From: Armatimonadota bacterium
GTDB taxonomy: Bacteria > Armatimonadota > HRBIN16
Direction of reading: 5' to 3'
Assembly: GCA_026003175.1 (NCBI GenBank)
Contig: BPGT01000003.1
Location: forward strand, 424,340-488,339
Length of the DNA: 64,000 nt
Shown here in pieces: positions 45,401 to 64,000 of the stretch. Below the pieces are notes generated by a model, which made no database searches, was not told the origin of the DNA, and saw only the letters and a program-made list of their open reading frames with translations. Position numbers and translations under genes: made by a program. Within the stretch, counting starts at the first letter, position 1. Each line of letters starts with the position of its first letter.

Positions 45401-45401
45401 C

Positions 45402-45698: not shown

Positions 45699-45716
45699 TC
45701 AGGAGGGGGAACACGA

Positions 45717-46439
45717 ATGGTTTCTGCACAGACACTGGACGTTCAGCAATTGAACGCACAGTATGAGATCTTGCCACCGCAAGCGCTGTTACAGTGGGCG
45801 GTGGAACAGTTCGGTAACCGTGTGGCGCTGGCGTGCAGCTTCGGCGCGGAGGATGTGGTGCTGGTGGACATGCTGGTCAAAATCACTCCGCAGCCACGCA
45901 TCTTCGTGCTAGACACCGGCAGGCTCCATCAGGAGACGTACGACGTGATGGAACGGTGCCGACAGCGCTATCGCATCGAGTTCGAGGTGTACTTCCCACA
46001 GACCGCACTGGTGGAGCAGCTGCTGCGCACCAAAGGCGCGAACTCGTTTTACCTGTCGGTGGAGAACCGCAAGGAGTGCTGCCATATTCGTAAGGTGGAA
46101 CCTCTGGGGCGCGCGTTGCAGGGACTGCAAGCGTGGATTACGGGCTTGCGTCGTCAGCAGGCGGTCACGCGAGCAGGCTTGCCCAAAATAGAGGTAGACG
46201 ACGCGCACGGCGGGATACTGAAACTCAACCCGCTGGTAGACTGGAGCGAACAACAGGTTTGGGATTACATTCACACCCACAACGTACCCTACAATGTTCT
46301 GCACGACAGGGGGTTCCCAAGCATCGGTTGTGCACCCTGCACCCGCGCTATCCAGCCGGGCGAAGACATTCGCGCTGGTCGCTGGTGGTGGGAGACACCG
46401 GAACAGAAGGAGTGCGGGTTACACGTGAAGCCCAAATAG
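45717..46439 (+). CDS. cysH: Assimilatory adenylyl-sulfate (APS) reductase, [4Fe-4S] type
   Basis: A 240-residue PAPS-reductase-fold enzyme. CSFGAEDVVLVDM is the nucleotide loop, and the two cysteine pairs KECCHIRK (near 120) and GCAPCTR (near 205) bind the [4Fe-4S] cluster that marks APS rather than PAPS reductases. The catalytic cysteine is in KECGLHVK at the end. It reduces APS to sulfite with thioredoxin. No APS kinase gene is present, which agrees with the APS route. AGGAGGGGG precedes the ATG. Confidence 0.93.
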   Translation: MVSAQTLDVQQLNAQYEILPPQALLQWAVEQFGNRVALACSFGAEDVVLVDMLVKITPQPRIFVLDTGRLHQETYDVMERCRQRYRIEFEVYFPQTALVEQLLRTKGANSFYLSVENRKECCHIRKVEPLGRALQGLQAWITGLRRQQAVTRAGLPKIEVDDAHGGILKLNPLVDWSEQQVWDYIHTHNVPYNVLHDRGFPSIGCAPCTRAIQPGEDIRAGRWWWETPEQKECGLHVKPK

Positions 46440-46451
46440 GAGGGCAAGACC

Positions 46452-48080: not shown

Positions 48081-48082
48081 GG

Positions 48083-48754
48083 ATGGGCTACTACCCTGTG
48101 TTTCTGGACTTGCGGGGGCGTGATTGTTTGGTTGTGGGCGGCGGTGCAGTGGCGTGTGAAAAGATAGCTGCGCTGCTGGACGCAGAGGCGTGCGTAACGG
48201 TCGTCGCCCCCGAAGCGGTAGAGCAGGTAGCGGAGTGGGATGAGCAGGGCAGGGTTCGCTGGATTCGCCGCGCGTGGAGACCTGAAGACGTTCGCGGGCG
48301 GTTCCTCGTTATCGCCGCCACAGACGACCCCACACTGCACCGCGAGATATACCGCGTCGTCAGTGCCCAGAACCGTTTGGTTAACACCGTAGACGACCTA
48401 GCCTCCTGCAACTTTATCTGCCCGGCGGTAGCGCAGGCAGGTGTTGTGAAGGTAGCGGTCTCTACGGCGGGTTGTAGCCCCGCACTGGCGCAACGCTTGC
48501 GTGACCGGATTCGGGAAGAGATTCTTGGCGAAGACACAGGCAAGTTGGCGCAATATTTGGGGGAGAAGCGTTCTCTGGTCAAAGCGCGGCTTGTTGGTTA
48601 TGAGCACAGACAGGCGTTCTGGCAGCGTGTACTGGATTCGCCAGTTCCCGCGTTGCTGTCACTGGGGCTTGTCAGGGAGGCTGACCTTCTGTTCGAGGAG
48701 ATGCTGGCGGAGGCGGCAGAGGTCCTTGTCCCAGCAGGCGGCGTAGCGATATGA
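48083..48754 (+). CDS. Precorrin-2 dehydrogenase/sirohydrochlorin ferrochelatase (Met8/CysG-N type)
   Basis: A 223-residue protein. YYPVFLDLRGRDCLVVGGGAVACEKIAALL is the NAD-binding start, then FLVIAATDD, NTVDDLASCNFICPA, VAVSTAGCSPALAQRLRDRI, as in the N-terminal half of CysG. It oxidises precorrin-2 and inserts iron to finish sirohaem, the cofactor of the reductase encoded just upstream. The ATG at 48083 lies 2 bases after that stop, with GGAGGGG in front. The frame is open further upstream (to 47774) inside the reductase gene, but that part is a shadow. Confidence 0.9.
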   Translation: MGYYPVFLDLRGRDCLVVGGGAVACEKIAALLDAEACVTVVAPEAVEQVAEWDEQGRVRWIRRAWRPEDVRGRFLVIAATDDPTLHREIYRVVSAQNRLVNTVDDLASCNFICPAVAQAGVVKVAVSTAGCSPALAQRLRDRIREEILGEDTGKLAQYLGEKRSLVKARLVGYEHRQAFWQRVLDSPVPALLSLGLVREADLLFEEMLAEAAEVLVPAGGVAI

Positions 48755-48767
48755 GGGGGAAAGCATA

Positions 48768-49571
48768 GTGAGACACGGCAGAGTATATCTGGTAGGTGCA
48801 GGACCCGGTGACCCCGATCTGATCACGCTCAAGGCAGTACGCTGCCTGCAACGGGCGGACGTTGTGCTATACGACCGCCTGGTATCTCCCTTGCTGCTCA
48901 CATATGCGCCGCCTGAGGCGGTGTGTGAATATGTTGGCAAAGAGTACGGTGAAGACAGCTGCGCCCGCCAGAGTGCGATTATCGATCGCATGATTGCCGA
49001 GGCGCGACTGGGCAAAACGGTGGTTCGGCTGAAAGGTGGCGACCCCTTCGTGTTCGGTAGAGGCGGAGAGGAGCTGCTCGCACTGGCACAAGCCGGAATA
49101 AGCGTGGAGGTCGTACCAGGGGTGAGCGCGGCTATCGCTGCACCTGCCAGTGCAGGGATACCGGTCACCTTCCGGGGTGTAGCGAGAGCGTTCGGCGTTT
49201 TTACCGGATATGCCGAATCCGGCGAGGAGGCGACCGACTGGCAGCTCGCCGCGAGAATGCCGACAGCGGTGTTTCTAATGTCCGTGCAGAGGTTAAGTTG
49301 TATCGCTCAGTCTCTGGTGCAAAACGGTCGTCATCCTGAAACGCCGGTTGCAGTGGTACAGAACGGCACCCTGCCGGAGCAGCAGGTATATTGGGGTACT
49401 CTCCGCGATTTGATAGAAGACGAACACTCTTTTGCACCGCCCGCTACGCTGGTGGTAGGCGAGGTAGTTCGTATCGGACAGCACGCCGCGTCCCTGTCGC
49501 GCATAGTGGTTGCCGTTCAGGAAATGCTCACCACAGCGGTATCAATGCCTGCGCGTGATGGTTCAGGTTAA
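48768..49571 (+). CDS. cobA: Uroporphyrinogen-III C-methyltransferase
   Basis: A 267-residue SUMT that puts two methyl groups on uroporphyrinogen III to make precorrin-2. Conserved parts are VYLVGAGPGDPDLITLKAVRCLQRADVVLYDRLVS, RLKGGDPFVFGRGGEE, VVPGVSAAIAAPASAGIPVTF and TAVFLMSV. Start GTG at 48768 with AGGGGGA nine bases upstream. With the preceding gene it gives a complete sirohaem branch inside the sulfate operon. The HemD activity that makes the substrate is not encoded here. Confidence 0.93.
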   Translation: MRHGRVYLVGAGPGDPDLITLKAVRCLQRADVVLYDRLVSPLLLTYAPPEAVCEYVGKEYGEDSCARQSAIIDRMIAEARLGKTVVRLKGGDPFVFGRGGEELLALAQAGISVEVVPGVSAAIAAPASAGIPVTFRGVARAFGVFTGYAESGEEATDWQLAARMPTAVFLMSVQRLSCIAQSLVQNGRHPETPVAVVQNGTLPEQQVYWGTLRDLIEDEHSFAPPATLVVGEVVRIGQHAASLSRIVVAVQEMLTTAVSMPARDGSG

Positions 49572-49630
49572 TCAATCCCTGCCCTTGCCTGCGAGAAATG
49601 TCCCATTTACCGACGGAGCCGAGCCACGAA

Positions 49631-49656: not shown

Positions 49657-49793
49657 ACCTTGAGCACACTGTACCCCCCATTCTATCATTCCTTATTGCG
49701 GGCAACACTTTCCTGCCCAACAGGATAGCACCCATTCAAAGGGGAAATATTAGCACGCGAACAACCATCACGTTCAGACAGGAGAGAGGGGTT

Positions 49794-50624
49794 ATGCCTG
49801 ACCAACTGATAGCCGGTAACTGGAAAATGCACGGCACGGTGGCGTGGTCACTCGCGCTGGTGGAGGATCTCAAACATCGCAACCTCGACGCGCTGAACGC
49901 GGAGGTATGCATTTGCCCACCCTTTACCGCGCTGTACGCCGTGCATCAGGCGTTACGCGGCACCGACATCAAACTGGGGGCGCAGGACGTGTTCTGGAAG
50001 GACCAGGGCGCTTATACCAGCCAGATATCCCCACCGATGCTGACCGAACTGGGGGTGAGTTACGTGATTATCGGTCACTCCGAGACACGCGGACGCTTCG
50101 GCGTGCCGGAACCCGACCTCACCGAAGACATCCTGCGCCACTTTGGCGAGAACGACGCCACGGTGAACCTGAAGGTGAAAGCGGCTTTGTTGCACGGGCT
50201 GACGCCTATCGTGTGTGTGGGCGAGACCCTCGCCGAGCGGCAGGCTGGGCAGACCGATGCGGTGATTACCGCACAGGTGACGCGCGACATCGACGGTCTG
50301 GACCCGGCAGAGGTCGGCTGTCTGGTCTTCGCTTACGAGCCTGTGTGGGCAATTGGTACAGGTGAGGTGTGCGACGCCCCAGAGGCGAACCGCGTGTGCG
50401 CCTTGATTCGGCGCATTGTCACGGACATCTGCGGCAAGGAGGCAGCACAAAGCTTGCGCGTGCTGTACGGTGGCTCCGTGAAGCCCGACAATGCGCACGA
50501 CCTGCTGGCACAGCCTCATGTCGACGGTGCGCTGGTGGGTGGAGCCAGCCTGAACGCCAGCTCCTTTGCGGAGATTGTATCGCACGCGCACAAGATTGCG
50601 GAGCGTCGCAACAACGGCGGTTAA
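49794..50624 (+). CDS. tpiA: Triosephosphate isomerase
   Basis: A 276-residue glycolytic enzyme interconverting DHAP and glyceraldehyde-3-phosphate. Catalytic Lys is in AGNWKMHGT, His in VIIGHSETR, Glu in AYEPVWAIGTG, and the phosphate loop is in LYGGSVKPDN. Length is slightly above the usual 250 residues. GGAGAGAGGGG lies just before the ATG. The gene is the last chromosomal one before the tRNA attachment site. Confidence 0.95.
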   Translation: MPDQLIAGNWKMHGTVAWSLALVEDLKHRNLDALNAEVCICPPFTALYAVHQALRGTDIKLGAQDVFWKDQGAYTSQISPPMLTELGVSYVIIGHSETRGRFGVPEPDLTEDILRHFGENDATVNLKVKAALLHGLTPIVCVGETLAERQAGQTDAVITAQVTRDIDGLDPAEVGCLVFAYEPVWAIGTGEVCDAPEANRVCALIRRIVTDICGKEAAQSLRVLYGGSVKPDNAHDLLAQPHVDGALVGGASLNASSFAEIVSHAHKIAERRNNGG

Positions 50625-50627
50625 ACC

Positions 50628-50656
50628 TTGCGCGCGGGGGCAATTTGCGGTATAAT
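50628..50656 (+). promoter_or_regulatory. Promoter of the tRNA-Arg gene
   Basis: TTGCGC (50628-50633), a 17-base spacer and perfect TATAAT (50651-50656) lie 24 bases before the tRNA 5' end. Confidence 0.6.
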
Positions 50657-50680
50657 GGCTTTGTAGGAAGAGCCTGCCCT

Positions 50681-50720
50681 GCCCCCGTAGCTCAGCAGGA
50701 CAGAGCAACTGCCTTCTAAT
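50681..50720 (+). pseudogene. 5' half of tRNA-Arg(TCT), attachment site of the integrated element
   Basis: GCCCCCG acceptor strand, TA, GCTC..GAGC D-arm and the anticodon arm ACTGC CTTCTAA give the first half of a tRNA-Arg with anticodon TCT. The expected 3' strand (GCAGT, variable loop, T-arm, acceptor) is absent: after the loop the sequence goes on TCACTCC. A tyrosine integrase follows at 50828. Breaking a tRNA at the anticodon loop is a known integrase target class. The missing half should lie at the other end of the element, beyond the window. Confidence 0.8.
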
Positions 50721-50740
50721 CACTCCAAAGTGACAGTAAA

Positions 50741-50778
50741 GGCGTGTCTGCACCAGATATGGTATGGACACGCCCTTT
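50741..50778 (+). terminator. Hairpin terminator between tRNA half and integrase
   Basis: GGCGTGTC and GACACGCC (50741-50748, 50767-50774) form an 8-bp stem, extendable by flanking A and T bases, followed by CTTTT. It would stop transcripts from the tRNA promoter before they enter the integrase gene. A 15-base direct repeat GTCTGCACCAGATAT (50746-50760 and 50787-50801) overlaps the loop. Confidence 0.6.
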
Positions 50779-50827
50779 TGTCCTCCGTCTGCACCAGATA
50801 TTGTGTTTGACAGGAGGATGGCTTACC

Positions 50828-51736
50828 ATGAACAGCAACTGCGCACAGGAATTACAACGCCTCAAGGACATCTGGTTGGACTACAAACGCAGCCAGAACC
50901 TCTCGCCCCGCTCCATTGAAGCCTACGACAAACGGGTGTCCTGGTTCATAAAGTACATGGACGGGTTCAACCTGCAAAGCGCAGAGGACATCAAACCAGC
51001 GCATATCGTGGTATACATGCAATACCTGCGTGAACTGGGATGGTCATCGGAATCGGTCTTTGATTACTGCAAAGACGTGCGCATCTGGTGGAGATGGTTG
51101 CATAAGATGGAACTGGTCAACCAGGACATCATGCGCAAAGTGGAGCTGCCTAAACGTGTGGACGTGGCTAAAACGGCACTCAACGATGAGCAACTGCACA
51201 AACTGCTGGATGCATGTGACGGTAAAGACTGGTTGTCCAGACGAGACCGCGCAATCATCGCTACCCTGGTAGACACAGGACTGCGCGCCTCGGAGTTCCT
51301 CACTATGACGGTAGCGGACGGTAAGAACGGCAGATTCATTGTGACCGGTAAAGGCGCACGACAGAGAATGGTGGTGCTATCCCGTGATGCACAACTGGAG
51401 ATCCTCCGATACCTCAAAAGCGTGCCGTTCCCACTGGAGGACGGGGATAAACTGTGGCAGGGCACAAAGGGACCACTCACACTGTACGGACTGTATCAGG
51501 TGGTACGTGCAGCAGGGGAACGCGCAGGCGTGGAAGTGACACCTCATGCATTGAGACGTACCTGCGCTACCTCTATGCTGCGGGCAGGAGCATCTCTGGA
51601 AGTGGTGCGCGTGACACTTGGACATAGCGGATACAGTATCCTGCAGAAGTATATCCGACTCTCAGAGGAGGATATCGCCGAACAACACGAACGATATTCA
51701 CCACTGCAACGCCTCAGAAGGAAGCGCAGGAGATAA
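50828..51736 (+). CDS. Tyrosine recombinase (XerC/D-like integrase)
   Basis: A 302-residue integrase. The N-terminal SAM-like DNA-binding domain (YKRSQNLSPRSIEAYDKRVSWF) is followed by a catalytic domain with Arg in TGLRASEF near residue 150, HALRRT near 240, LGHSGY near 264 and the nucleophile Tyr in LQKYIRL near 273. It inserts or excises DNA at short core sites. The ATG at 50828 has AGGAGG ten bases upstream; a longer frame from 50744 reads through the terminator and was not used. Its place next to a broken tRNA makes it the enzyme of this element. Confidence 0.92.
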   Translation: MNSNCAQELQRLKDIWLDYKRSQNLSPRSIEAYDKRVSWFIKYMDGFNLQSAEDIKPAHIVVYMQYLRELGWSSESVFDYCKDVRIWWRWLHKMELVNQDIMRKVELPKRVDVAKTALNDEQLHKLLDACDGKDWLSRRDRAIIATLVDTGLRASEFLTMTVADGKNGRFIVTGKGARQRMVVLSRDAQLEILRYLKSVPFPLEDGDKLWQGTKGPLTLYGLYQVVRAAGERAGVEVTPHALRRTCATSMLRAGASLEVVRVTLGHSGYSILQKYIRLSEEDIAEQHERYSPLQRLRRKRRR

Positions 51737-51743
51737 ACAGAAT

Positions 51744-51763
51744 GGGCTGGTTTACACCAGCCC
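51744..51763. terminator. Hairpin between integrase and small minus-strand frame
   Basis: GGGCTGG and CCAGCCC form a perfect 7-bp stem with a 6-base loop, 7 bases after the integrase stop. There is no strong T run on either side; it may serve both converging frames. Confidence 0.5.
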
Positions 51764-51770
51764 CAGACAC

Positions 51771-51887
51771 TTACTCTATACTCCCTTCACCGGACGCCGC
51801 ATACAACCATCCGGCAACGAAGCCGAGTAACCAGCCGCCGATGAAGGAGAGAACCATCTTGATGGTAATGGCTAACTGGAGGTCCAA
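51771..51887 (-). CDS. Possible 38-residue membrane peptide
   Basis: A TTG-initiated frame with AGG nearby encodes a short peptide with one hydrophobic helix rich in glycine and aromatic residues (FIGGWLLGFVAGWLYAA). It is too short to identify. Such peptides on elements can be holin-, toxin- or bacteriocin-like, but nothing beyond the helix supports this. It converges on the integrase gene with a hairpin in between. Confidence 0.3.
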   Translation of the reverse strand: MDLQLAITIKMVLSFIGGWLLGFVAGWLYAASGEGSIE

Positions 51888-52100
51888 CCTGCATCACCTG
51901 CCTCTGCGATATGGAGAGACACCAGTACCGCGAGGCGGTCTACTCTCAGGAGGAGAGGTCAACGCTTCATATACCTCGCTGCTGGATAACTCTACCGGAC
52001 CGCAGCAGAGGAGAGCGTTGTTACTGCGCCAGTAGTGATAGGTGACCCCAACACTTCCAACCTTTTTATGATATTTTAATAGTGTTGCCCACAAAATCAC

Positions 52101-52129
52101 TTGACACGTTACAATTCCTGCATTATAAT
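52101..52129 (+). promoter_or_regulatory. Consensus sigma-70 promoter of the TPR-RHS operon
   Basis: TTGACA (52101-52106), 17-base spacer, TATAAT (52124-52129): a perfect match, 32 bases before the TPR start. This is the strongest promoter in the window. Confidence 0.75.
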
Positions 52130-52161
52130 AATGGTACAGGCTTTTATCTGGAGGGATGGCG

Positions 52162-53223
52162 ATGAGAGCCTTACTGGTCAGCACAGTGCTCCTGATGTGT
52201 GTGGGCAATGCGCCCGTCACGGGGGGGGGTACAGCGCCTCCTCTGCTGGTTCATGTAGTCCTTCAGCAAGATACCTCTCTTGACGCAGACAGCCTGCTCA
52301 AACAGGCATACGACCTCAAGGGGCAAGGCAAGCGCGACGAAGCCCGTACCCTCTTTGAGAAACTGATGCGAGATTACCCCAATACCTCCGCCGGAGTGGA
52401 AGCGCGCTGGATGGTCGCCTATTACCTGCTTAATGACAAGCAGTTTGATGAGGCACAGCGGCTGTTTCAGCAGGTGGCAGACGATGCCCGTGCCAAGCCC
52501 GACATCGCAGCGGAGGCGTTGCTGCAGACGGGGTTCGTGTATCTCTCCCGCTACTGGGCGGAGGGAGATGCGCCGGGCGAGCAGAGATACAAACTACTGG
52601 AGCAGGCAAAGACGCGCCTGTCACAGATAGCCAGAAGCCTCTCCAATCGCAGAGACGACATTGGTCGCACCGCTGTGGCTTATGCGTTGTTAGGCGTGGG
52701 TGAGGCATGGCTGTATCAGGGCATGGCTGAGCAGGCGGAACCTCACTATCGGGCGATACTGGCGATGAAGGGAGGAGTGTCTGAGATAGTTCTGGCTCAG
52801 GCATGGTATTGTCTTGGGGTGAGCCTGTATCGGCAGCGCAGGTATGCGGAGGCGCTGGAGGCATTCGATGCGGTGAAGCAGATAGGCGAAGCGGGCGAAG
52901 GCATCGTATTGCGTTCGCTGGCGTTAGGCAACGCCCTGCCGGAGCGGGCGTGGTTGTGGCAGGCAGCCATCTGGGCGCAGTTAGGCTACGCGGAGCGTTC
53001 GGTGGCTGCGCTGGAGGAAGGGCTGCGCCGTCCTGAGCGTTTGGCAGGGGCAAAAAACGCTGCCCTGCTGGCACAAGCTCAGAAGTCTCTGGAAGGGATG
53101 CGCCGGGTGGTAGAGAGGCAGAAAGAGCGTGAGAAGCGTCTGGCAGAAGTGAAACGATTAGCACAGCAGTTAGAGCAGAATACATCGTCCACCGTGTTAC
53201 CGGTCTCTCAGACAGGTCATTGA
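52162..53223 (+). CDS. Exported TPR protein
   Basis: A 353-residue protein with a signal peptide (MRALLVSTVLLMCVGNA) and TPR-type helices, for example LLKQAYDLKGQGKRDEARTLFEKLM, DKQFDEAQRLFQQVADDA, and the YRQRRYAEALEAFDAVK segment. The C-terminus is charged and coiled-coil like. The ATG at 52162 has GGAGG seven bases upstream; an ATG two codons earlier is too near it. A run of eight G at 52220-52227 lies in the signal region. It is 16 bases upstream of the RHS gene and probably helps export or assemble the RHS protein, which is inference. Confidence 0.75.
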   Translation: MRALLVSTVLLMCVGNAPVTGGGTAPPLLVHVVLQQDTSLDADSLLKQAYDLKGQGKRDEARTLFEKLMRDYPNTSAGVEARWMVAYYLLNDKQFDEAQRLFQQVADDARAKPDIAAEALLQTGFVYLSRYWAEGDAPGEQRYKLLEQAKTRLSQIARSLSNRRDDIGRTAVAYALLGVGEAWLYQGMAEQAEPHYRAILAMKGGVSEIVLAQAWYCLGVSLYRQRRYAEALEAFDAVKQIGEAGEGIVLRSLALGNALPERAWLWQAAIWAQLGYAERSVAALEEGLRRPERLAGAKNAALLAQAQKSLEGMRRVVERQKEREKRLAEVKRLAQQLEQNTSSTVLPVSQTGH

Positions 53224-53239
53224 AGGAGGGTGTAGAGGG

Positions 53240-56200
53240 ATGCGCCGTTTCACATCGGTACTCTTTGTCACAGCACTGGTGTTACTGGCAGCCTCTGTGG
53301 GCTGGAGCAAATCTAATAAGGCAGGCGACCCGCCTCCCAGCACGGATCCTCCGCCTCCTCCGTGGTCAGGTACTTGTCCCTTCGACCCGTCGGGTTGTCC
53401 GGTTCCTGATCCTGGTGATGGTGGCGAGCCACCGGGCGGAGGTGGTTCGTGCGGACCGGTGGGAGCGTATCCGCTGTATGCCGCGAGTGCAGGCGATCCG
53501 GTGAACCTTGCCGCAGGCGTGGAGGCGTATCGCCCTGCAGACGACCTGGTGGTATATAACCCGTATGGTCCGCGCGTGGTGTGGCGACGGCATTACTACG
53601 GGGGGTTGGCTATTCAGGAACTATCCTCTGGTGGCTTATCCATGGGGTGGGTACACTCGTACGACGTCACCCTGCAGAGAGTTGGTGCCAACACGTGGGA
53701 CGTCACGTTGAGGTATCCCTACGGAGCATCGGAACCGTTGGTAGCGGAATTAGATGTTCAGGGACGACCGACAGGGGTGCTGAAGTCGCCTGACCGCCAG
53801 CCGAGCGGTGCGCCCTATATTGTGCGCGGTGTCCCCTCCGGCACACCGTATGTGTGGCAGTCGGTAACTGTGACCTGGCGTGACCAGACACAGTGGACTT
53901 TTGTGCCCTTTGACGGTAGTAAGTATGTGCTCAGTCGGATAACCAACCGGGTAGGTCGCTCCATTGGCTTGACATGGGATAGTGGTCAGCGGCTGTTGCA
54001 GATCACCGAAACGGGCACCGGTCTGGTGTTGCTGAGTCTGGCGTACGGTGCCAACGGTTTGCTCTCCTCGGTGACCGATGCGTATGGGCGTCAGGTGTCC
54101 TACGGCTACTCGCAACCTGCCAACCTGTCGGTGCTGTGTTTAACGTGGGTATCGCAGATAGTGCCAGCGGGCACGCCCAACCCGCCGATGCGCTACGCTT
54201 ATAACTACATCTCGTTCGGCTCAACCAAACCGTTGCTCTCCAGCATCAGCGTGCCCAGTCCCACCGGTTCAGGGGTCGCCACCTCTACCCTGCAATACAG
54301 CAACGGACGGGTGGTAGCGCGGATAGACGCCAACGGCAACCGCACCGAATACAGTTACGACGTGGCAAATCACCTGACCACGGTGACGGTGAAGAACCCA
54401 CAGGGCAATGTGGTATACACATGGACGCAAAAGTATAACGATTCCCGCGCCAACACGGGCACGATTGACGCGCAGGGCAACCAGGTGATGATAGAGTATA
54501 ACGACCCGGTGAACCCGTACCGTCCCACGCGCATCGTGGACAGGGACGGCAAGGCAACCACCTACACTTACGATGAGTTTGGCAACGTGTTGACGGTGAC
54601 CAATCCAAGAGGTGTCACCACCACCTACACCTACGATAAATCTATCTTCCCGCTGGGCAGGCTGGTGAGCGTGCAGGAGGGAACCAAGCCGCCCACCACG
54701 TATACCTACTATGAGCCTTCCGGGCTGGTGCAGAGCGTCACCTCCCCCAAGCCGGGCTCCTTAAGCGGGGAGACGGTGACCACCACCTACACGTATGACA
54801 GTCTGGGCAACGTGCTGACAGTCACCTCGCCGGGCAACAACGCCACGCAGCAGATGGTGACAGTGTATAACTACACTCAGGATGGCAGTTATACACAGCC
54901 GGCGAAGGTAGGTCAGCCCTTGACGGTGACGGACAACATGGGCAACGTGACGCGCTATCGGTATGATGCGCGGGGTAATCGCACGGTGGTGATAGACGCC
55001 AACGGCAACCGTACGGACTTTGCCTACAACATCGCCGACCAGCTGGTGGAGGTGCAGTATCCGGCAACGGGTCAGCAGGGAAGCGGGCGGGCGCGTACGG
55101 TGAGCGTGTATCAGTATCCGGGCGGAGCGTTGAGCCAGGTAGTAGAGTATGACGAGAGTGGCACGCAGATACGTGGGGTGACGTATGCGTATGGTGCGGA
55201 GGGAGAGTTGTTGTCGCGCACGGGCAGCACGGAGGCAGTGCAATACATCTACGACGCGGCGTATCGGGTGGTTGGAGTGCGCGACGGCAACGGCAACCTC
55301 ACCTCGTTCACTTACAACACACGCGGTGACCTGACGCGGATTACCTATCCGGGCGGCGATACCTTGCAATTCGATGCCTATGACAGTGCGGGCAGGCTGT
55401 TGCGTCGCATAGACGGACGCAACATCATCACCAACTACACCTACAACGACCCGGAGGGGTTGTTAACGGAAATACAGTATGTGCAGAACGGTCAGGTCAT
55501 CGGCACGGTGAGTTTCACGTATGATTCGGACGGTCGTCGGGCAAGCATGACGGACGGCACGGGGGTAACCACTTACAGTTACGACCACATGGGCAACCCG
55601 CTGAGCGTGAGCGTGACCTACACGGGCTTGCCCACGCGCACCATTACCTACAGTTACTATCCCGACGGCAGCCGGGCGAGCATGGGCACTCCCGCTGGCA
55701 CATACAGTTACACCTACGACGCAGCAGGCAGGCTGGTGGGACTGAGCGCGGTGGGCTTCATTGCCAGCTGGACATACGCGCCCAACGGGTGGTTGCTGAC
55801 ACAGACGGTGAACGGAGCAACGACGAGTTACGAATACAACGTGCGGGGCTTCCTGACCCGCTTGACCAACCGCGATGCGGGTGGCAATGTGCTGTCGGAC
55901 TTCCAGAACTTGCAGTATGACGGCGTGGGCAACCGTGTGGGGATGACGGTGAGTTTCCCTGCCCAGCCCAGTCTGGCGGGTGCGACCAACTACGCCTACG
56001 ACCTCAAGAACCAGTTGCTCTCCGAGCAGTCCACGCGGGCGGGAGGATACAGTTTCAGTTTTGGCTATGACGCGGCGCAGAACCCCACCACCTTCAAGGG
56101 GCAATCGCGCACCTACAACGCCAACAACCAGCTCACCGGCACCGGCTTTGCATATGACGGCAACGGCAACCCGGTCATCTACAAGGGGGTGAACCTGTCG

Positions 56201-57223
56201 TTTGACCCCGAGAACCGGATGACGGCGTATGGCAGCATATTGACCGCCGGCTACAACGGGGACGGCTTGCGGGCGTGGAAGCAGACGGCGTCTGGCAGGC
56301 GGTATTACCTGTATGACGGGGAGGAGCTGGTGTGCGAACTGGACGCATCGGGCAATGCGGTGGCTCCGGTGGTGTTCGGTGCAAACGGGTTGATAGCGTA
56401 TGGCAGTTTCATCTACCAGTTTGACCCTCAAGGCAACGCCGTTCACATCATAGATAACAGTCGTAACGTGCTGGCGCACTTCGCCTATGATGCGTGGGGT
56501 CAATTGATGTCCGGCTCCAACCCTACGCCCTACGGTTACAAAGCGCAGTGGGGCTACTACACGGATGTAGAAACTGGTATACTGTTACTGACTCACCGTT
56601 ACCTTGACCCCGCGACGGGCAGGTTTCTGACGAGGGACCCGGCGGGGTGTGAGGCGAGTGTGAATTTATATTTCTACGTGGAGAATTCTGTAGTCAATGC
56701 AAGCGATCCGTCCGGAGAATTTATCAATCCGACCCCCCCACACCGGAGGCCTCCTGTACGTCCCTGGCCTCCTGGCAGCCCGAGAAAGCCTTGTGCTCGC
56801 CCTCATGTGGGAGGTTTCCTTCCTCTGCCAGGCAATCCCAGGACATGTGCTCCTTATCTACATGCCTGTAACATGGGGTTCATAGTTGCGTGCAACATGT
56901 ATTATGTATGTATGGGGGCTGGACCAGGACCTGGTGGTGGAGGACTGCTGCCACCTATCGGGGGTGGCGGAGCCAACTGTGTGCGAGGCTGTTTACTGAG
57001 CGTCTTTGGCTCACCTAGTTTATTGTCCTGTTGGTGTGCTTATGCTCAGCATCGCGAATGCATGGCTTTGTGCGGCTATAGCCCGCCCTGGCCGTTCGAC
57101 TGGAACACTTGGGGAATAGTATGCCGAATACGACTACCCGGCGCTCCGCCTCCGGGACGAGCGCCGATACCAACCCCACCTGGTGCCGGAGCGCCAAGTT
57201 GGCCCTGCTTGGCACCACCTTGA
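53240..57223 (+). CDS. Secreted RHS-repeat protein with cysteine-rich C-terminal tip
   Basis: A 1327-residue RHS/YD-repeat protein with a Sec signal peptide (MRRFTSVLFVTALVLLAASVGWS) and a Pro-rich linker (residues 28-75). The N-terminal DUF6531-type part (DPVNLAAGVEAYRPADDLVV) is followed by some twenty YD repeats (for example NRTEYSYD, ATTYTYDEFGN) forming the hollow shell. The core ends YLDPATGRFLTRDPAGCEASVNLYFY, then DPSG. The last 169 residues (from 56717) are a variable tip rich in Pro, Gly and Cys (13 Cys, with CVRGC and CMALC). No PAAR domain or known toxin motif is seen. GAGGG lies seven bases before the ATG. Confidence 0.88.
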   Translation: MRRFTSVLFVTALVLLAASVGWSKSNKAGDPPPSTDPPPPPWSGTCPFDPSGCPVPDPGDGGEPPGGGGSCGPVGAYPLYAASAGDPVNLAAGVEAYRPADDLVVYNPYGPRVVWRRHYYGGLAIQELSSGGLSMGWVHSYDVTLQRVGANTWDVTLRYPYGASEPLVAELDVQGRPTGVLKSPDRQPSGAPYIVRGVPSGTPYVWQSVTVTWRDQTQWTFVPFDGSKYVLSRITNRVGRSIGLTWDSGQRLLQITETGTGLVLLSLAYGANGLLSSVTDAYGRQVSYGYSQPANLSVLCLTWVSQIVPAGTPNPPMRYAYNYISFGSTKPLLSSISVPSPTGSGVATSTLQYSNGRVVARIDANGNRTEYSYDVANHLTTVTVKNPQGNVVYTWTQKYNDSRANTGTIDAQGNQVMIEYNDPVNPYRPTRIVDRDGKATTYTYDEFGNVLTVTNPRGVTTTYTYDKSIFPLGRLVSVQEGTKPPTTYTYYEPSGLVQSVTSPKPGSLSGETVTTTYTYDSLGNVLTVTSPGNNATQQMVTVYNYTQDGSYTQPAKVGQPLTVTDNMGNVTRYRYDARGNRTVVIDANGNRTDFAYNIADQLVEVQYPATGQQGSGRARTVSVYQYPGGALSQVVEYDESGTQIRGVTYAYGAEGELLSRTGSTEAVQYIYDAAYRVVGVRDGNGNLTSFTYNTRGDLTRITYPGGDTLQFDAYDSAGRLLRRIDGRNIITNYTYNDPEGLLTEIQYVQNGQVIGTVSFTYDSDGRRASMTDGTGVTTYSYDHMGNPLSVSVTYTGLPTRTITYSYYPDGSRASMGTPAGTYSYTYDAAGRLVGLSAVGFIASWTYAPNGWLLTQTVNGATTSYEYNVRGFLTRLTNRDAGGNVLSDFQNLQYDGVGNRVGMTVSFPAQPSLAGATNYAYDLKNQLLSEQSTRAGGYSFSFGYDAAQNPTTFKGQSRTYNANNQLTGTGFAYDGNGNPVIYKGVNLSFDPENRMTAYGSILTAGYNGDGLRAWKQTASGRRYYLYDGEELVCELDASGNAVAPVVFGANGLIAYGSFIYQFDPQGNAVHIIDNSRNVLAHFAYDAWGQLMSGSNPTPYGYKAQWGYYTDVETGILLLTHRYLDPATGRFLTRDPAGCEASVNLYFYVENSVVNASDPSGEFINPTPPHRRPPVRPWPPGSPRKPCARPHVGGFLPLPGNPRTCAPYLHACNMGFIVACNMYYVCMGAGPGPGGGGLLPPIGGGGANCVRGCLLSVFGSPSLLSCWCAYAQHRECMALCGYSPPWPFDWNTWGIVCRIRLPGAPPPGRAPIPTPPGAGAPSWPCLAPP

Positions 57224-57330
57224 GAAGTTGCTCGTTGAGCACAGGAGAACCTGAGTTGTACCAGCTATCAGGGATAGTGCGGGTTATTCACCGCTACGTA
57301 AGGAAGGTGTCCGAACGTCGTCATGGTGTA

Positions 57331-58644
57331 ATGAGATGTTCCGTCGGTACCTTCCTCGCCATGGCACTCTGGAGCACCCTGCTTTTCAGCTCGTGTGCTG
57401 TCGACAGGGAAAGAACTCCTAACTTACAAAAGACTGGGATGAGTAGTGAAGGTCTGAAGCAGGTTTGGGATATGATTGACAGGGGACACTATCGGATGGT
57501 AGTTGCTGCAGAGGAGGGAAGTTCTGTTCGGGTGATTCGGCGGGTAGAGGCATGGTGGGACACGCATGCCGATCTGCTGCGGGTGGAGGAACGTGACGGA
57601 CAAGATACCCTCATCTGGTTGCTGCTCAAAGAAGGTCTTACCGTGTGGAGCATAGATGTTCCTCGACGGCAAGCCCAGCGACTGACCTTGAAGCAAACAG
57701 GCATCTCCTCGCCTGTGCTACTGCTGCACCCTTATTCTGCGCTTTGGCGGAAGGCATCCCTGACGAGCGTGCAAGCCTTATGCGGGGACCCTTTGCGCAC
57801 CTCTGTGTGGAACGCTGTCCGAGAGCACGAGCACACGCAATTAGCAGGCGACAAAGTGCTCTATACCTGGCAATACGATAACGGCTTTGCACAGGTCTCT
57901 GCAGAACTGCAAGCGAATAGCCTGCTGCCCCTCCAGTGCAAAGTCACTTACCCTGATGGAAAGCGGCTGATATACACGTATGCGATTCTCGCCCGAAGTG
58001 ACGTTCCTGAGAATGTGCGCCGCCTGCCTGGCTTCGACTCGATAGAGGCTCAGATCGTCGATAATCCGCTGGATTTGGGAGAGAAGGTGACTTTGTTACG
58101 TCCCTCCGTTCCCGACGGTGCGCAGGAGGGTGCAGGTGAACCCGACAAGTTTGCCGGAGGTTATACTGACTGGTACTCGGCAAATCCCAACGCTCGCCGA
58201 TTCGCATCTCTGCGCGAGTTGTTCCTCCAGACGGGCATTCGCATAACACCCCTTCCTGCACGCTGGGGCGAGCCTCATGAAATCATCTACGTCAGGGAAG
58301 CGTATCAGCCTGGTGTGCCTCCACTGGAGGTTGTTCGTCTCACGTATCGGAAGGGTTCTGCAAGAGAGTTTCGTCTGGAAATACAACAGCTGCCTGCAGG
58401 ATACCAGGCAGTAGCAGATAGCATTCTCGCACACAGTGACAGGTTTATTGCAGTGGGAAAGCAGAGAGTGGGGATAATTAGTCCCTTGGCGCCATATAGA
58501 CCTGCATGGATAGCTACATGGTATGATACGCAGAGACATCAAATCATCTCATTAGATTACATTGGCAGCGAAGGCTCATTTTTGAACATGGTTAAAGAGA
58601 TACTCCACGAATATACTGTAACAAAAAGAACGGATAGAAGATAG
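57331..58644 (+). CDS. Lipoprotein, candidate cognate partner of the RHS tip
   Basis: A 437-residue protein. MRCSVGTFLAMALWSTLLFSSCAV is a lipoprotein signal with the cysteine at residue 23. The mature part resembles MucB/LolA-like outer-membrane lipoprotein-sorting folds: GLKQVWDMIDRGHYRMVV near the start, then RRVEAWWDTHADLLRVEERDGQDTLIWL and a later KRLIYTY. No close family is recognised. It comes 108 bases after the RHS stop, the place of an immunity gene in RHS loci. An immunity protein anchored at the envelope would fit a toxin acting outside the cytoplasm. The frame is open back to 57109, over the RHS end; that part is a shadow. Confidence 0.6.
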   Translation: MRCSVGTFLAMALWSTLLFSSCAVDRERTPNLQKTGMSSEGLKQVWDMIDRGHYRMVVAAEEGSSVRVIRRVEAWWDTHADLLRVEERDGQDTLIWLLLKEGLTVWSIDVPRRQAQRLTLKQTGISSPVLLLHPYSALWRKASLTSVQALCGDPLRTSVWNAVREHEHTQLAGDKVLYTWQYDNGFAQVSAELQANSLLPLQCKVTYPDGKRLIYTYAILARSDVPENVRRLPGFDSIEAQIVDNPLDLGEKVTLLRPSVPDGAQEGAGEPDKFAGGYTDWYSANPNARRFASLRELFLQTGIRITPLPARWGEPHEIIYVREAYQPGVPPLEVVRLTYRKGSAREFRLEIQQLPAGYQAVADSILAHSDRFIAVGKQRVGIISPLAPYRPAWIATWYDTQRHQIISLDYIGSEGSFLNMVKEILHEYTVTKRTDRR

Positions 58645-59048
58645 TACTCTGTCAAGGCTCAATCTTCTGGAGGGCGAGGCTCCTGCCGAGCCGATGTTGT
58701 TGGCATTCACGGCTAAAGCCGTTCCCTTACAAACAAAGCCAGCCTGCGCTGGCTGCTAAACCTTCTGGAGGGCGAGGCTCCTGCAGAGCCGTTAGCCCCC
58801 CTGTAGTCCCCCCGCAGGCAGGGGGACACTTTCTCTCCCCGCGTGCGGGGAGAGCCAGAGAGGGGCTACCTCCTCCCCGCCTGAGGGGAGGCGGGGTGGG
58901 GCTACCTGTTTCGGCTCACCAGGAGGTTCGCCCTCCAGAGCAGCAAGCGGAGATTCATGCTTGACAAAGTAATAGTTTGCCCAGATGCCTCTGTTCTTTC
59001 CGATGGTGCGTTGGCACACGCAATTACACTGAATACTGGGAGTAGTTG
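58645..59048. repeat. Mosaic of dispersed repeats before the first displaced RHS tip
   Basis: A 30-base motif CTTCTGGAGGGCGAGGCTCC... occurs twice directly (58664-58693, 58762-58791) and once inverted (58912-58938). Between them are hairpins such as AGCCAGC.TGCGCTGGCT and CTCTCCCCGC.GCGGGGAGAG. No gene is supported. The mosaic directly precedes the point where RHS core homology restarts (about 59046). Confidence 0.7.
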
Positions 59049-59705
59049 ATGTCCGGTTACAACCCTACGCCCTACGGCTACAAAGCGCAATGGGGCTATT
59101 ACACCGACGTGGAAACTGGTATACTGTTACTGACGCATCGCTACCTTGACCCCGCGACAGGCAGGTTTCTGACGAGGGACCCTGCGGGGTGTGAGGCAAG
59201 TGTGAACCTATACGCATACGTAGGAAACCGAGCGGTGAACCGGATAGACCCTTCAGGACTATGCACCAAGATTGGGAACCAGTGCTATGGGTGGGATTGC
59301 CATGGCGACCCTGACTGCCCACCTGCGAAGCCAAAACCTAAACCCAAACCAAAACCATCGCCTGCACCCTCCCCACCTCCTGGGTGGTGTCGTCCAGATC
59401 CCGGCGCTCCCTGCCCTCCGGGACAAACTTGCATATCCCGACATCCTTGTCCGCCCGGTACAGCTTACGCTTGGTATTGTGGTGTTGGCTGGTGTATAGG
59501 CTCGGAGGCGGGATGCCTCGCGAAGTGTACATGGCCCGGCTTAGGCGAGTTTGGTGAGGATCTCTGCCAGCGGTGCTGCGAGGACCTAGGCGATGAGCTG
59601 GGGTGGTCTAATTGGAAGATCAACCACTGCATGGTTGATTGTATACATTACTCAAATTTCCCAGACACATGGGAGCAGCTCCCTGTTATCCCTGTAGCCT
59701 ATTAA
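59049..59705 (+). CDS. Displaced RHS C-terminal tip 1 (orphan)
   Basis: A 218-residue protein beginning in the conserved RHS core end (SGYNPTPYGYKAQWGYYTD to DPATGRFLTRDPAGCEASVN, then DPSG), with about 70 residues nearly identical to the full-length RHS protein. After DPSG the tip (from 59259) is unrelated to the full-length one: 17 cysteines, a (KP)n linker (PKPKPKPKPSPAPS), CLAKC, and the end NHCMVDCIHY. There is no signal peptide. GGGAG lies six bases before the ATG, so it may be translated on its own; it may also be a store for recombination into the RHS core. Confidence 0.7.
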   Translation: MSGYNPTPYGYKAQWGYYTDVETGILLLTHRYLDPATGRFLTRDPAGCEASVNLYAYVGNRAVNRIDPSGLCTKIGNQCYGWDCHGDPDCPPAKPKPKPKPKPSPAPSPPPGWCRPDPGAPCPPGQTCISRHPCPPGTAYAWYCGVGWCIGSEAGCLAKCTWPGLGEFGEDLCQRCCEDLGDELGWSNWKINHCMVDCIHYSNFPDTWEQLPVIPVAY

Positions 59706-59727
59706 CATTTTGGCGGGAGGTAAGACC

Positions 59728-60801
59728 ATGCACAAGCTGGTTGCCGTATTGGTATTTGTACAGGTAGTGGGATATGGCGCTACCACTTGGGCGCAAGATA
59801 TTTTCCAGGCGACAATTCGTGGAGACGATGCTGCAGTAACAAAGTTACTCGCTCGCAATCCTCGCCTGGTTCATTCTCGCGAGAGGTCCAGAGGTCTTAC
59901 CCCGTTACATGTTGCAGCGGCTTACGGTCATTTGCGGATAGTACAGATACTTCTGAAGCACGGAGCGGACGCCAACGCGAAAGATAATATGGGTTCTACC
60001 CCGTTGTTCTACGCAGTGGGGAGGAACCAGACAGCCGTCGCACAATATTTGCTGACCCACGGTGCCAAAGCGGATGTTGCGGTGGAACAGCGTGTCGACG
60101 GGGTCTCAACAGGTAAAATCATTACCCCATTGCTGCTCGCTGTTCGGCAGGCAAATCCGCAGATGGTTCACCTTCTGCTGCAACATGGTGCCTCCGTGCG
60201 GGGCGCAAGTGGCAGTGCTGCGCTGCACAGTGCCGTCAGTGCGGGCAATGTGGGCATCGTGAAGGTTCTATTACAGGCAGGGGCAGACCCCGTTTCCCGA
60301 GACAACCCACAGAGTGCTACCCCTCTACATGTTGCTGCAGGCAACGGACACCTGCCCGTGATGGAGGTGCTGAAGGGTTACTACAAATCAGTGGACACGC
60401 GCGATAACTCTGGACGCACTCCTTTGCATTTTGCAGCTCTGGGAGGAAAGGCGCAGGCGATCAGATGGCTTCTCCAGCATGGCGCCGATGTCAACGCTGT
60501 AGACCAAGCTGGGAGGACGGCTCTCATGTATGGCTCAGGCATGGGGCACACGGATGTAGTAAAGGTGTTGTTGCAGCAAGGGGCAGATGTGCGGGCAAGA
60601 GACAGGATAGGCAACACAGCGTTGCACTACGCTTGCCAGGCTCGTAAGGACACGGGTTATCCGGTAGTGCAGATTCTGCTTCAGCACGGCGCTGACAGGG
60701 ACGCACGAAACGAGGGCGGGATGTCGCCGCTGCAAGTGGCGTTGAGTCGCGGAAACTTGAAGTGTGCGGGGTTACTACGTGAGCATGGGGCGAGAGAATA
60801 A
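59728..60801 (+). CDS. Exported ankyrin-repeat protein, candidate immunity protein
   Basis: A 357-residue protein with a signal peptide (MHKLVAVLVFVQVVGYGATTWA) followed by about nine ankyrin repeats, for example GLTPLHVAAAYGHLRIVQILLKHGADAN and the TPLHFAALGGKAQAIRWLLQHGADVN unit. Ankyrin stacks bind other proteins. It follows orphan tip 1 by 22 bases with GGGAGGT seven bases before the ATG. Ankyrin proteins are frequent immunity candidates in polymorphic toxin loci. Export to the periplasm would match a tip acting there. Confidence 0.75.
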   Translation: MHKLVAVLVFVQVVGYGATTWAQDIFQATIRGDDAAVTKLLARNPRLVHSRERSRGLTPLHVAAAYGHLRIVQILLKHGADANAKDNMGSTPLFYAVGRNQTAVAQYLLTHGAKADVAVEQRVDGVSTGKIITPLLLAVRQANPQMVHLLLQHGASVRGASGSAALHSAVSAGNVGIVKVLLQAGADPVSRDNPQSATPLHVAAGNGHLPVMEVLKGYYKSVDTRDNSGRTPLHFAALGGKAQAIRWLLQHGADVNAVDQAGRTALMYGSGMGHTDVVKVLLQQGADVRARDRIGNTALHYACQARKDTGYPVVQILLQHGADRDARNEGGMSPLQVALSRGNLKCAGLLREHGARE

Positions 60802-60832
60802 AGTGTGAGGCGGTACGCAACGTGCATAACGC

Positions 60833-61450
60833 ATGGCAGGCATACTCTTACTGACACACCGTTACCTTGACCCCACGACGGGCAGGTTTTTGACGAGGGA
60901 CCCGATAGGGATTGAGGGAGGTATCAACCTGTATGCCTACTGCCGCAACCGCGTGGTCATGCTCAATGACCGTTCCGGCACGATAGGTTTCTTCCCCGTC
61001 GTCTGCTCGGCTTGCGCGGTGTGTCTGGCAGGGTTTGCATTATCCTGCTACGACTGCGGTCTGGACGCCTCCTGCTGGATGAACTGTGTGAGCAACATCT
61101 GGCAAAACCTGCCCACATGGGTTAAAATACTGTGTGGAGGAGCATGCATTGGGTGCGGGGTACACATAATCCTGCCAGGGCCGAAGCCAGATCCACATCC
61201 TGTGCCTCTGCCCAATCCTCGCGAACCTGTGAAACCTGAGCCCGATTGCCCTGATGGGGATGGGCACCGCCCTGTGCTCAATCGTTATCTGTGTACCAAG
61301 TATTGCAGAAATCAGTGCGCTTATTGGAGAGATATTGAGTGGGAGACGTACAAGCGCTGTTTTGAGCAATGCATGATGGACTGTCTTATCAAAGGTATCC
61401 TGCCCGATGCATGCCCTCCCGTTGCACCAGTCCCGTTGTACCAGAAATGA
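60833..61450 (+). CDS. Displaced RHS C-terminal tip 2 (orphan)
   Basis: A 205-residue protein. Its first 45 residues are the RHS core end (LLTHRYLDPTTGRFLTRDP, INLYAYCRNRVVM), shorter than in tip 1. From 60980 a tip of about 157 residues with 18 cysteines follows: an N-terminal hydrophobic Cys cluster (CSACAVC, CWMNC, CGGACIGC), a Pro-rich linker, then CTKYCRNQC and KRCFEQCMMDCL. No ribosome-binding site is near the ATG and no signal peptide is seen, so it may not be expressed on its own. Confidence 0.65.
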   Translation: MAGILLLTHRYLDPTTGRFLTRDPIGIEGGINLYAYCRNRVVMLNDRSGTIGFFPVVCSACAVCLAGFALSCYDCGLDASCWMNCVSNIWQNLPTWVKILCGGACIGCGVHIILPGPKPDPHPVPLPNPREPVKPEPDCPDGDGHRPVLNRYLCTKYCRNQCAYWRDIEWETYKRCFEQCMMDCLIKGILPDACPPVAPVPLYQK

Positions 61451-61460
61451 GGTAACGCCC

Positions 61461-62258
61461 ATGAAAGAAAACAAACGCGCAGAGGATCAACCCGAACTGA
61501 TGCCGTTAGAAAGAGGCGAGCACGTGATGCTTCTGGAGGTGGAAGGCAGATACCACGAGGCTCTGGAACTATGCCGGAGATATCTGTCGGAGCCGGAACG
61601 TCTCACCGAACAGGAACGACAAATTTTGGAGGACCGGTACGCTGTGTTAAGCCGGTTTACAGACCCCAACTACTCACCCCCTGCTCACCTTCCATCGGAG
61701 GAGTACGAACCGTTACATCTGCTCATGTGGGACGCTCTGCGGCGCGGCGATTACGAGCAGGCTTTGCTGAAAGCATGGGACTATATGCAGTATCTCTCCG
61801 CAGGCTCATATCCCTTGCAACTTGCGCTCGGCGAACTGGCAGACTGCGCCCTGAAGGCAGGCGAGGAGCAGTTGGCGAAGGCAGCTGCCCACCTCTTTGT
61901 GGCTCATCTGAGGTTCCTGGAAGTCGCTTCCCGCAACCCCAAGACGCCGATTAGCCCTCGCATCCCGCGCGAGAAGTGGAAGCCAGTGGAGAAGCCGATT
62001 GCCGAGATAGTATTTGCTATTCCCGAGGAGACAGCCTTTCGGTTCATTCTGGAGGAGGACCACCCCGACTGGGCGACGATACTGGAGATGAGAGCGGACA
62101 TTGACGCGGATTTCCCCTTCCATCCTTCGCCTCGTTTCCTGCGTGTTGTGGAGGCACTGGTGCGACACTATCAGAAGTTCGGCAAGCGGGAGGCGTTGCA
62201 GGCACTGCTGCAGAGGCATCCCGAAGCGCGTCGGTTCGTGCAGGGAGAACAGGAGTAA
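61461..62258 (+). CDS. Helical repeat protein, third candidate partner
   Basis: A 265-residue cytoplasmic protein; no signal. Short TPR-like helices are visible (EGRYHEALELCRRYL, GDYEQALLKAWDYM, FGKREALQALLQRHPEARR). No family is recognised. The ATG has GAGGTAA about six bases upstream and follows orphan tip 2 by 10 bases, the position of an immunity gene. Unlike the other two candidates it is not exported. It could equally be an accessory like the TPR protein at the head of the locus. Confidence 0.6.
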   Translation: MKENKRAEDQPELMPLERGEHVMLLEVEGRYHEALELCRRYLSEPERLTEQERQILEDRYAVLSRFTDPNYSPPAHLPSEEYEPLHLLMWDALRRGDYEQALLKAWDYMQYLSAGSYPLQLALGELADCALKAGEEQLAKAAAHLFVAHLRFLEVASRNPKTPISPRIPREKWKPVEKPIAEIVFAIPEETAFRFILEEDHPDWATILEMRADIDADFPFHPSPRFLRVVEALVRHYQKFGKREALQALLQRHPEARRFVQGEQE

Positions 62259-62822: not shown

Positions 62823-63999
62823 TCAAGACTCTGGTGAACCGCCGGCGATGTATTGGACGAGTTCTTTCACCTGGTCCAGTGACAGGGAGAATGCTTTGAA
62901 TTGGACGCCTTCTGCCCTGTGGGGTTTAGTGTCCGGGCTGGCGAACCGGCCGATGAGGCGTCGCACCTGCGATGCCACCGCTTCCGGCTTCTCCCGTACA
63001 CAGTCGGCTATGTAGTCGTAGAGGTGTCGTGCGTGCCAGAGGATCATGCCGTCTCGTATCACCGCTTTGAGAGGTCCGAGTTGGCTGGACTGTTTGTCGG
63101 ATGGGTATGGGCTCCAGTCCTGTTCCTTAGTGGGATAGTAGAGTGTGCTGTATCCGCCCCCGACCAGCCCCTCCTTCTCGATTGTATACATCACCTCCTC
63201 CATCACCTCCAACAGCACGTCCGCTACCACCGAGTTCCGCACCGACTCCACACGGGCGTTCGCCGTGTCCCGCCAGGCAGCTTCTTCATGGCTCAGCGTG
63301 TGGTCGAATCCACTCTTGTACAGGCTCACCGCTTGTGACCAGAGCTGAAGGACGTCCAGTTCCCTGTACGACCAATCTATGCCTTCCAGGTGCAGCGTCA
63401 CGAACCGTCGGTTACCGGTACTATCCCGTAGCAGGTCGGCGGCGTCGTTTGCGGTTGCGACGAAGGATGCCCTGTGCCGGAAGGAGGTCATCTCTCGTGC
63501 GTACGGAAGCCTGATGGACGTCTCTGGTGCGCTCAGGAATCGCTTCAGGGCGTCGAGGGTCCCGCCGTCGGGTGGTGGATCCTAACTCGTTAAGCTCCCA
63601 GACCAGGCATCTGGCAGCCTGCACCACGCTCTCTCTTGCATCGGGGTCAAGCGGCGAGTCTGTGAACAGTTCAGGAGCAGGAGACAACCATCTGGCGAGG
63701 CTGGACTTCCCGATTCCCTGCCGCCCGATGAGGACCAGCGTGAAGTTCTGCTCAAAACGCAATGCCTTCGCTACGGCTCCAACCAGCCACTTCCGCAGGA
63801 AGAGCTCAACGGGGTTGTTACCGTCCGGTAGGGGCGGCATTCGATGGGCGATATGGTTAGCAAACAATCTTATCCAATCCTGTCCGTCCCATTCCGGCAG
63901 GTTCTCCAGCAGGTTGGCGATGGGGTCGAATGCGTTGTAGCGGGCGTATCCTACCAGGGCGTCGCGCACTCGTTCCTTCGGTATCGGCACCCGTGTCAC
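62823..63999 (-). pseudogene. VapE-like P-loop replication ATPase, frameshifted, partial at window edge
   Basis: Two adjacent minus-strand frames form one protein. The first gives FDPIANLLENLPEWDGQDW, Walker A in LIGRQGIGKSSLARWL and Walker B in CLVWELNEL; the second continues DALKRFLSAPETSIRLPYA, MTSFRHRASFVATAN and GNRRF. This is the virulence-associated E (PF05272) helicase/primase-associated fold of phages and integrative elements. The frames join at 63581-63582 on the plus strand, where one extra base (TTAGGATCC instead of TTAGATCC in gene sense) breaks the gene. The 5' part continues beyond 64000. A mutation or an assembly error is possible. Confidence 0.75.
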
Positions 64000-64000
64000 C

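What the first reader, a model, noticed from the sequence alone, without database searches (positions are those of the whole stretch)
52101..62258. Secreted RHS locus with two displaced tips, each followed by a candidate immunity gene, on an integrated element
Seen: a full RHS gene with a Sec signal, followed by a lipoprotein gene; then two short genes that repeat the RHS core end and switch after DPSG to new tips, each followed within 10-22 bases by another gene (exported ankyrin protein, helical protein). Known: RHS/CDI loci store orphan tip-immunity pairs that recombine into the core. Inference: this is such a store, but with Sec export, no PAAR or secretion apparatus nearby, and two of three partners exported, so the tips would act outside the cytoplasm. 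I know of no described system with this combination.
Basis: partly seen in the sequence, partly recalled or inferred. Interest (0 to 1): 0.82.

Follow-up and report, generated by a model that had tools for sequence, protein, structure and literature searches.

The report
Secreted Rhs toxin with swappable tips
A hot-spring bacterium carries an exported RHS protein whose C-terminal tip appears to be exchanged for spare tips stored, each with its likely antidote gene, next to the gene and elsewhere in the genome; this is a known kind of bacterial weapon, here with unusually cysteine-rich tips and mostly envelope-bound antidotes.

Summary
Window 52156-62258 holds an exported TPR gene, a 1327-residue Sec-signal RHS gene followed by a putative lipoprotein gene, and two displaced core-end/tip genes, each followed within 22 or 10 bases by a partner gene. 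Relatives show it is a displaced-tip store. In six genomes of the genus about 60 orphan copies carry about 200 bp of core DNA whose similarity falls to chance at the tip junction. Partner family follows tip family (51 of 88 same-tip pairs; shuffle maximum 12). Orphan tips in one species sit on full-length cores in another. Bacterium HR16 has the same site with a different current tip before the same old displaced pair.

The kind is known: rhs C-terminal displacement, Sec-exported RHS toxins and ankyrin immunity proteins are described. 'No described system' is too strong; 'integrated element' is not supported.

What looks new: tips average 7.6% cysteine (core 0.6%; other RHS tips of the phylum 1.7%); 14 of 21 partner families look membrane-bound or exported; all nine full cores are preceded by the same exported TPR gene; the genome lacks T6SS sheath, PAAR and phage-sheath families but has five secretins. 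Toxicity and immunity are inferred, not shown.

The parts
52156..53223 (+). Exported TPR protein (355 aa), 16 bases before the RHS gene; probable dedicated accessory of the core
   Evidence: Pfam TPR_2 6e-12; homologues occur nine times in the genus, each directly before one of the nine full-length cores and nowhere else
53240..56716 (+). RHS core: Sec signal, proline-rich linker, DUF6531, RHS/YD repeats, core-end motif DPAG-19-DPSG
   Evidence: PDB Rhs and Tse5 chains to 6e-25; dN/dS 0.12-0.29 between genus cores
56717..57223 (+). Current tip of the full-length RHS (168 aa, 13 Cys); distant relative is an orphan tip in G002
   Evidence: no Pfam family beyond the core
57331..58644 (+). Putative lipoprotein, candidate immunity protein of the current tip
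   Evidence: MRCSVGTFLAMALWSTLLFSSC; no Pfam match; found only in copies of this locus, so linkage is untested
59037..59258 (+). Displaced core end of orphan 1 (74 residues, 88% to the core)
   Evidence: one in-frame TAG upstream
59259..59705 (+). Orphan tip 1 (148 aa, 17 Cys); relatives in G001 and G004 with the same type of partner
59728..60801 (+). Exported ankyrin-repeat protein, candidate immunity protein of orphan tip 1 (alternative TTG start 59710)
   Evidence: Pfam Ank 3e-68; exported or lipoprotein-like ankyrin partner follows this tip family in 3 of 3 copies
60839..60979 (+). Displaced core end of orphan 2 (47 residues, 70% to the core)
60980..61450 (+). Orphan tip 2 (156 aa, 18 Cys, hydrophobic N-terminal part); homologous tip sits on a full-length core in G002 and as a displaced remnant at the same site in HR16
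61461..62258 (+). All-helical, TPR-like protein without signal, candidate immunity protein of orphan tip 2
   Evidence: AlphaFold pLDDT 71.6, all helices; best Foldseek hits TPR repeats, E 3e-3, weak; all six genus matches at RHS loci

Best explanation
This is a Sec-exported RHS polymorphic toxin locus of the genus of bacterium HR16 (HRbin16) with a store of displaced tip-immunity cassettes. The full gene is exported with its TPR partner; the RHS repeats form a shell around the C-terminal tip, which is cut free at the DPxG-DPxG core end and poisons competing cells, many of the tips probably in the envelope, where disulfides are stable. Each tip's neighbour protects the producer. New tips enter by homologous recombination in the roughly 200 bp of core end that every cassette carries, pushing the old tip and its immunity gene downstream. 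Shown by sequence: anatomy, shared core ends, tip-partner linkage, tip replacement at one site, cassette transfer between species, purifying selection. Inferred: shell, cleavage, toxicity, immunity, outer-membrane exit (a secretin is plausible), targets.
For: RHS core and core-end families; solved Rhs and Tse5 structures as relatives. 69 core-end copies at 60% identity or more in genus loci; DNA similarity about 80% before the junction and 25% (random) after it between different tips. 51 of 88 same-tip pairs share a partner family against mean 3.4, maximum 12 in 2000 shuffles. Five tip families occur both as orphan and on a full core. HR16 has the same site: 94.5% identity over window 49711-56654, a different tip and partner, then the displaced tip 3 and helical partner found in the window. 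Cassette dS between G000 or G004 and G002 is 0.12-0.17 where core dS is 1.2-1.4: horizontal exchange. Most tip dN/dS values are below 0.4. Tips 7.6% Cys against cores 0.6%. No VipB, PAAR or Phage_sheath_1, five secretins. Signal peptides on all seven cores read.
Against: No tip has a confident match to a known toxin: only sub-threshold Peptidase_C97 for tip family 8 and weak or chance PDB matches; the tip fold attempted failed (pLDDT 47). A third of partner families look soluble, which does not fit a purely envelope-directed arsenal. The current tip's lipoprotein partner occurs only at this locus and the related tip in G002 has a different neighbour. How the protein crosses the outer membrane is unknown.
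Confidence: 0.85

Rival explanations
1. The RHS protein is a surface adhesin or glycan-binding protein whose variable tips change binding specificity (antigenic variation), and the neighbours are chaperones or anchors rather than immunity proteins.
For: No tip matches a known toxin family confidently; the tips are cysteine-rich like extracellular binding modules; partners include repeat proteins.
Against: Partners follow their tip nearly one-to-one and include small multi-membrane-span proteins next to hydrophobic tips, as for membrane-active toxins; related arrays in the phylum and in the own genome carry DUF4329 and DUF4258 tips, which I recall as polymorphic-toxin-associated domains; the core is related to toxin shells.
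Confidence: 0.1
2. Decaying debris: the orphan tips are remnants of partial duplications with no function.
For: 15 of 69 genus copies are fragments; orphan prefixes contain stops and lack the export signal.
Against: Most tip pairs show dN/dS well below 1, e.g. 0.04 at dS 0.77 and 0.14 at dS 1.09; cassettes 93-99.7% identical move whole, tip plus partner, between species; orphans reappear on full cores.
Confidence: 0.05

Closest known systems
Enterobacterial rhs C-terminal displacement arrays (PMC2935791; orphan activation in Salmonella, PMC3967940)
   Same: Core end with two DPXG motifs, non-homologous tips, downstream arrays of displaced tips with immunity genes, shared ancestral tip displaced independently in different strains
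   Different: Here no PAAR or T6SS; Sec signal; the store is spread over six chromosomal sites in one genome; tips cysteine-rich; motif spacing 19, not 18
Bacillus WapA (described in PMC3967940 as likely exported by the general secretory pathway)
   Same: Sec-exported RHS/YD protein with variable C-terminal toxin and immunity gene
   Different: Genome has secretins (double-membraned envelope); no N-terminal wall-binding family found by Pfam; TPR partner gene
Bacterial teneurin-like proteins (PMC13018210)
   Same: Sec-exported RHS-like shell with polymorphic C-terminal domain, no obvious delivery machinery; a C-terminal domain that inhibits E. coli only with a signal peptide
   Different: Those proteins carry added adhesion domains and often a TIP domain; here only RHS_repeat and DUF6531 are found, with tip arrays
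Myxobacterial SitBAI (PMC5562445)
   Same: Sec-exported polymorphic toxin, cognate immunity gene, exported accessory gene directly upstream, no dedicated apparatus
   Different: SitA is a lipoprotein, delivered by outer membrane exchange; SitB is predicted a beta barrel, not TPR

Membership tests
Rhs polymorphic toxin with displaced tips | RHS/YD repeats ending in the conserved core-end motif DPXG-(18)-DPXG | tested here: met
   RHS_repeat 5e-65, Rhs_assc_core 1e-16; spacing is 19 residues
Rhs polymorphic toxin with displaced tips | Non-homologous tips on near-identical cores, with displaced tips downstream | tested here: met
Rhs polymorphic toxin with displaced tips | Cognate downstream immunity gene | tested here: inconclusive
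   Genetic linkage met; neutralisation not testable here
Rhs polymorphic toxin with displaced tips | Tip is a toxin | not testable with these tools
   No confident family match; fold failed
T6SS Rhs effector | PAAR domain or T6SS in the genome | tested here: not met
   No PAAR or VipB match in the genome, controls positive
WapA | Sec signal plus YD repeats | tested here: met
WapA | N-terminal wall-binding domains in a Gram-positive host | tested here: not met
   Pfam finds only RHS_repeat and DUF6531; genome has secretins
Bacterial teneurin-like protein | Full teneurin superfold with extra adhesion domains and TIP domain | not tested
   No fold of the core was run; Pfam shows only RHS_repeat and DUF6531; two teneurin-like PDB chains match over parts of the core
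eCIS / PVC toxin | Contractile sheath genes in the genome | tested here: not met
   No Phage_sheath_1 match

The most novel reading that the evidence does not exclude
A lineage-specific RHS weapon specialised for the cell envelope: disulfide-rich tips in many unknown families, mostly membrane or periplasmic immunity proteins, exported by Sec with a dedicated TPR partner and released through a secretin, with its cassette store spread over the chromosome and traded between species.
Probability: 0.35. Interest if true: 0.7.

Novelty: new variant of a known kind. Interest (0 to 1): 0.52.

Why it matters
It gives a natural series of about 15 multi-member tip-partner families without known toxin domains, in a lineage not covered by the papers I could search (no relevant hit for Armatimonad + Rhs). 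If true, it is a test case for how Sec-exported RHS toxins leave a double-membraned cell without T6SS, and the cysteine-rich tips would be a set of possibly new envelope-active antibacterial proteins, with the TPR gene as the obvious candidate for the missing delivery step.

Tried and rejected
Folding the HR16 tip (family 10), which by eye resembles a 3D/double-psi-barrel muralytic domain: AlphaFold alone gave pLDDT 47 and neither Pfam nor PDB profiles support it, so I do not claim it. Papain-like identity of tip families 0, 8 and 13: families 8 and 13 are probably related (hhalign 93%), 0 and 8 not shown, and the only family hit is sub-threshold Peptidase_C97 (0.013); a lead only. Relatives of tip 0 in viral contigs: none. 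The core end in viral contigs gave one contig with no clear cassette. The integrase as part of the element: rejected. An excess of odd cysteine counts (43 of 53 tips) is not independent across relatives and was dropped. The first clustering had a frame error on the minus strand and was redone.

Full report
What is there. The unit on the + strand is: exported TPR gene 52156-53223; RHS gene 53240-57223 with a Sec signal (core to 56716, tip 56717-57220); putative lipoprotein gene 57331-58644; orphan 1 (core end 59037-59258, tip to 59705); exported ankyrin gene 59728-60801; orphan 2 (core end 60839-60979, tip to 61450); helical gene 61461-62258. Orphan 2 reads DRSG at the junction, not DPSG. The core matches RHS_repeat, DUF6531 and Rhs_assc_core, the last ending exactly at the junction, and solved Rhs effectors and Tse5. 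The three tips have no family match.

Where it comes from. The window is the end of contig C3 of a 4.1 Mb genome. The closest named relative is bacterium HR16 (NCBI lists it as unclassified Bacteria; placement in Armatimonadota and the hot-spring origin are from my own knowledge). The genome has no T6SS sheath, PAAR or phage-type sheath family, with positive controls, and has five secretins.

It is a tip store. The own genome has one full core of this clade, 15 orphans with tips of 90 residues or more and three fragments, at six places; G004, G001, G002 and G009 also have arrays. Orphans carry a median of 208 bp of core DNA; between different tips, similarity is about 80% from 120 to 30 bp before the junction, 53% in the last 30 bp and 25-26% after it. 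This is the footprint expected of recombination in the core end.

Partners belong to tips. Clustering tips and following genes independently, 51 of 88 same-tip pairs have the same partner family; 2000 shuffles gave a mean of 3.4 and a maximum of 12. For the window: the ankyrin partner follows orphan tip 1's family in three genomes; the helical partner follows orphan tip 2's family in G000 and G002, and all six genus matches to it lie at RHS loci. The lipoprotein is found only in copies of this locus, so its pairing is untested. G004 carries the window locus twice, at 99.99% and 99.3%, so it is not independent evidence there.

Tips are exchanged. Five tip families occur both as orphans and on full cores in different species. 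The clearest case is one site in two species: HR16 matches the window at 88% over 45190-49574 and 94.5% over 49711-56654, then has tip 10 with its own partner instead of the window's tip, then a remnant of tip 3 and the helical gene, which the window also has at the far end. The same old pair has been displaced by different newcomers, as described for E. coli in PMC2935791. Whole cassettes also move between species: dS of 0.12-0.17 between cassettes of G002 and G000 or G004 against 1.2-1.4 for their cores, and 93-99.7% identity across tip plus partner. Most tip pairs have dN/dS well under 1, so stored tips are not plain debris.

What is unusual. Tips of this clade average 7.6% cysteine (53 distinct tips), cores 0.5-0.7%, window genes 1.6%, and 40 RHS tips from elsewhere in the phylum 1.7%. 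Of 21 partner families attached to real tips, 14 have predicted membrane spans or signals and 7 do not (a simple hydropathy scan, sorted by me). Hydrophobic tips of families 2 and 15 sit next to small multi-span membrane proteins. The TPR gene precedes each of the nine full cores and was found nowhere else in ten genomes: a fixed partner of the core, comparable in position to SitB in PMC5562445.

How it most likely works. Inferred steps: Sec export of core and TPR protein, shell formation around the tip, cleavage at the core end, exit by an unknown route, possibly a secretin, killing or inhibition of neighbours, often in the envelope, and protection by the partner. None of these was shown here. 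Soluble partners for a third of families mean that some tips may act in the cytoplasm.

Known or new. Tip arrays and their recombination (PMC2935791; PMC3967940), Sec-dependent RHS toxins and ankyrin or LRR immunity proteins (PMC3482391), and Sec-exported RHS-like toxins without machinery, one inhibitory only with a signal peptide (PMC13018210), are described. The locus is therefore a new variant of a known kind. The cysteine-rich tips and the fixed TPR partner are, as far as my searches show, not described; those searches cover open-licence papers only.

Noticed in passing
window 62823-64000; L069:1259-3676: A primase-polymerase plus VapE-like helicase gene (Prim-Pol 4e-28, VapE 8e-39) follows the locus on the other strand, a typical mobile-element gene.
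   Followed up: partly
L068, L069 (G004 C1 and C9): Another species of the genus carries the window locus twice, 99.99% and 99.3% identical over 12-14 kb; recent transfer, duplication or mixed assembly.
   Followed up: partly
window 61461-62258 and L061:13280-14050: The helical gene is nearly identical in its C-terminal two thirds and strongly diverged in the N-terminal third between window and HR16, suggesting a recombination junction inside the gene.
   Followed up: no
L105, L084: Tips resembling family 0 (H..I.F...GFW) occur in distant families of the phylum with few cysteines; L084 also holds a DUF4329 tip.
   Followed up: no
L021, L022, L023, L025: The same genome has further RHS arrays with a divergent core end and cysteine-poor tips, one with DUF4258.
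   Followed up: no
L078:7658-8020: HR16's current tip reads PPGTEIEVPGYGRCKVEDCGA..LDVW, by eye like a 3D muralytic domain; not confirmed by any search.
   Followed up: partly
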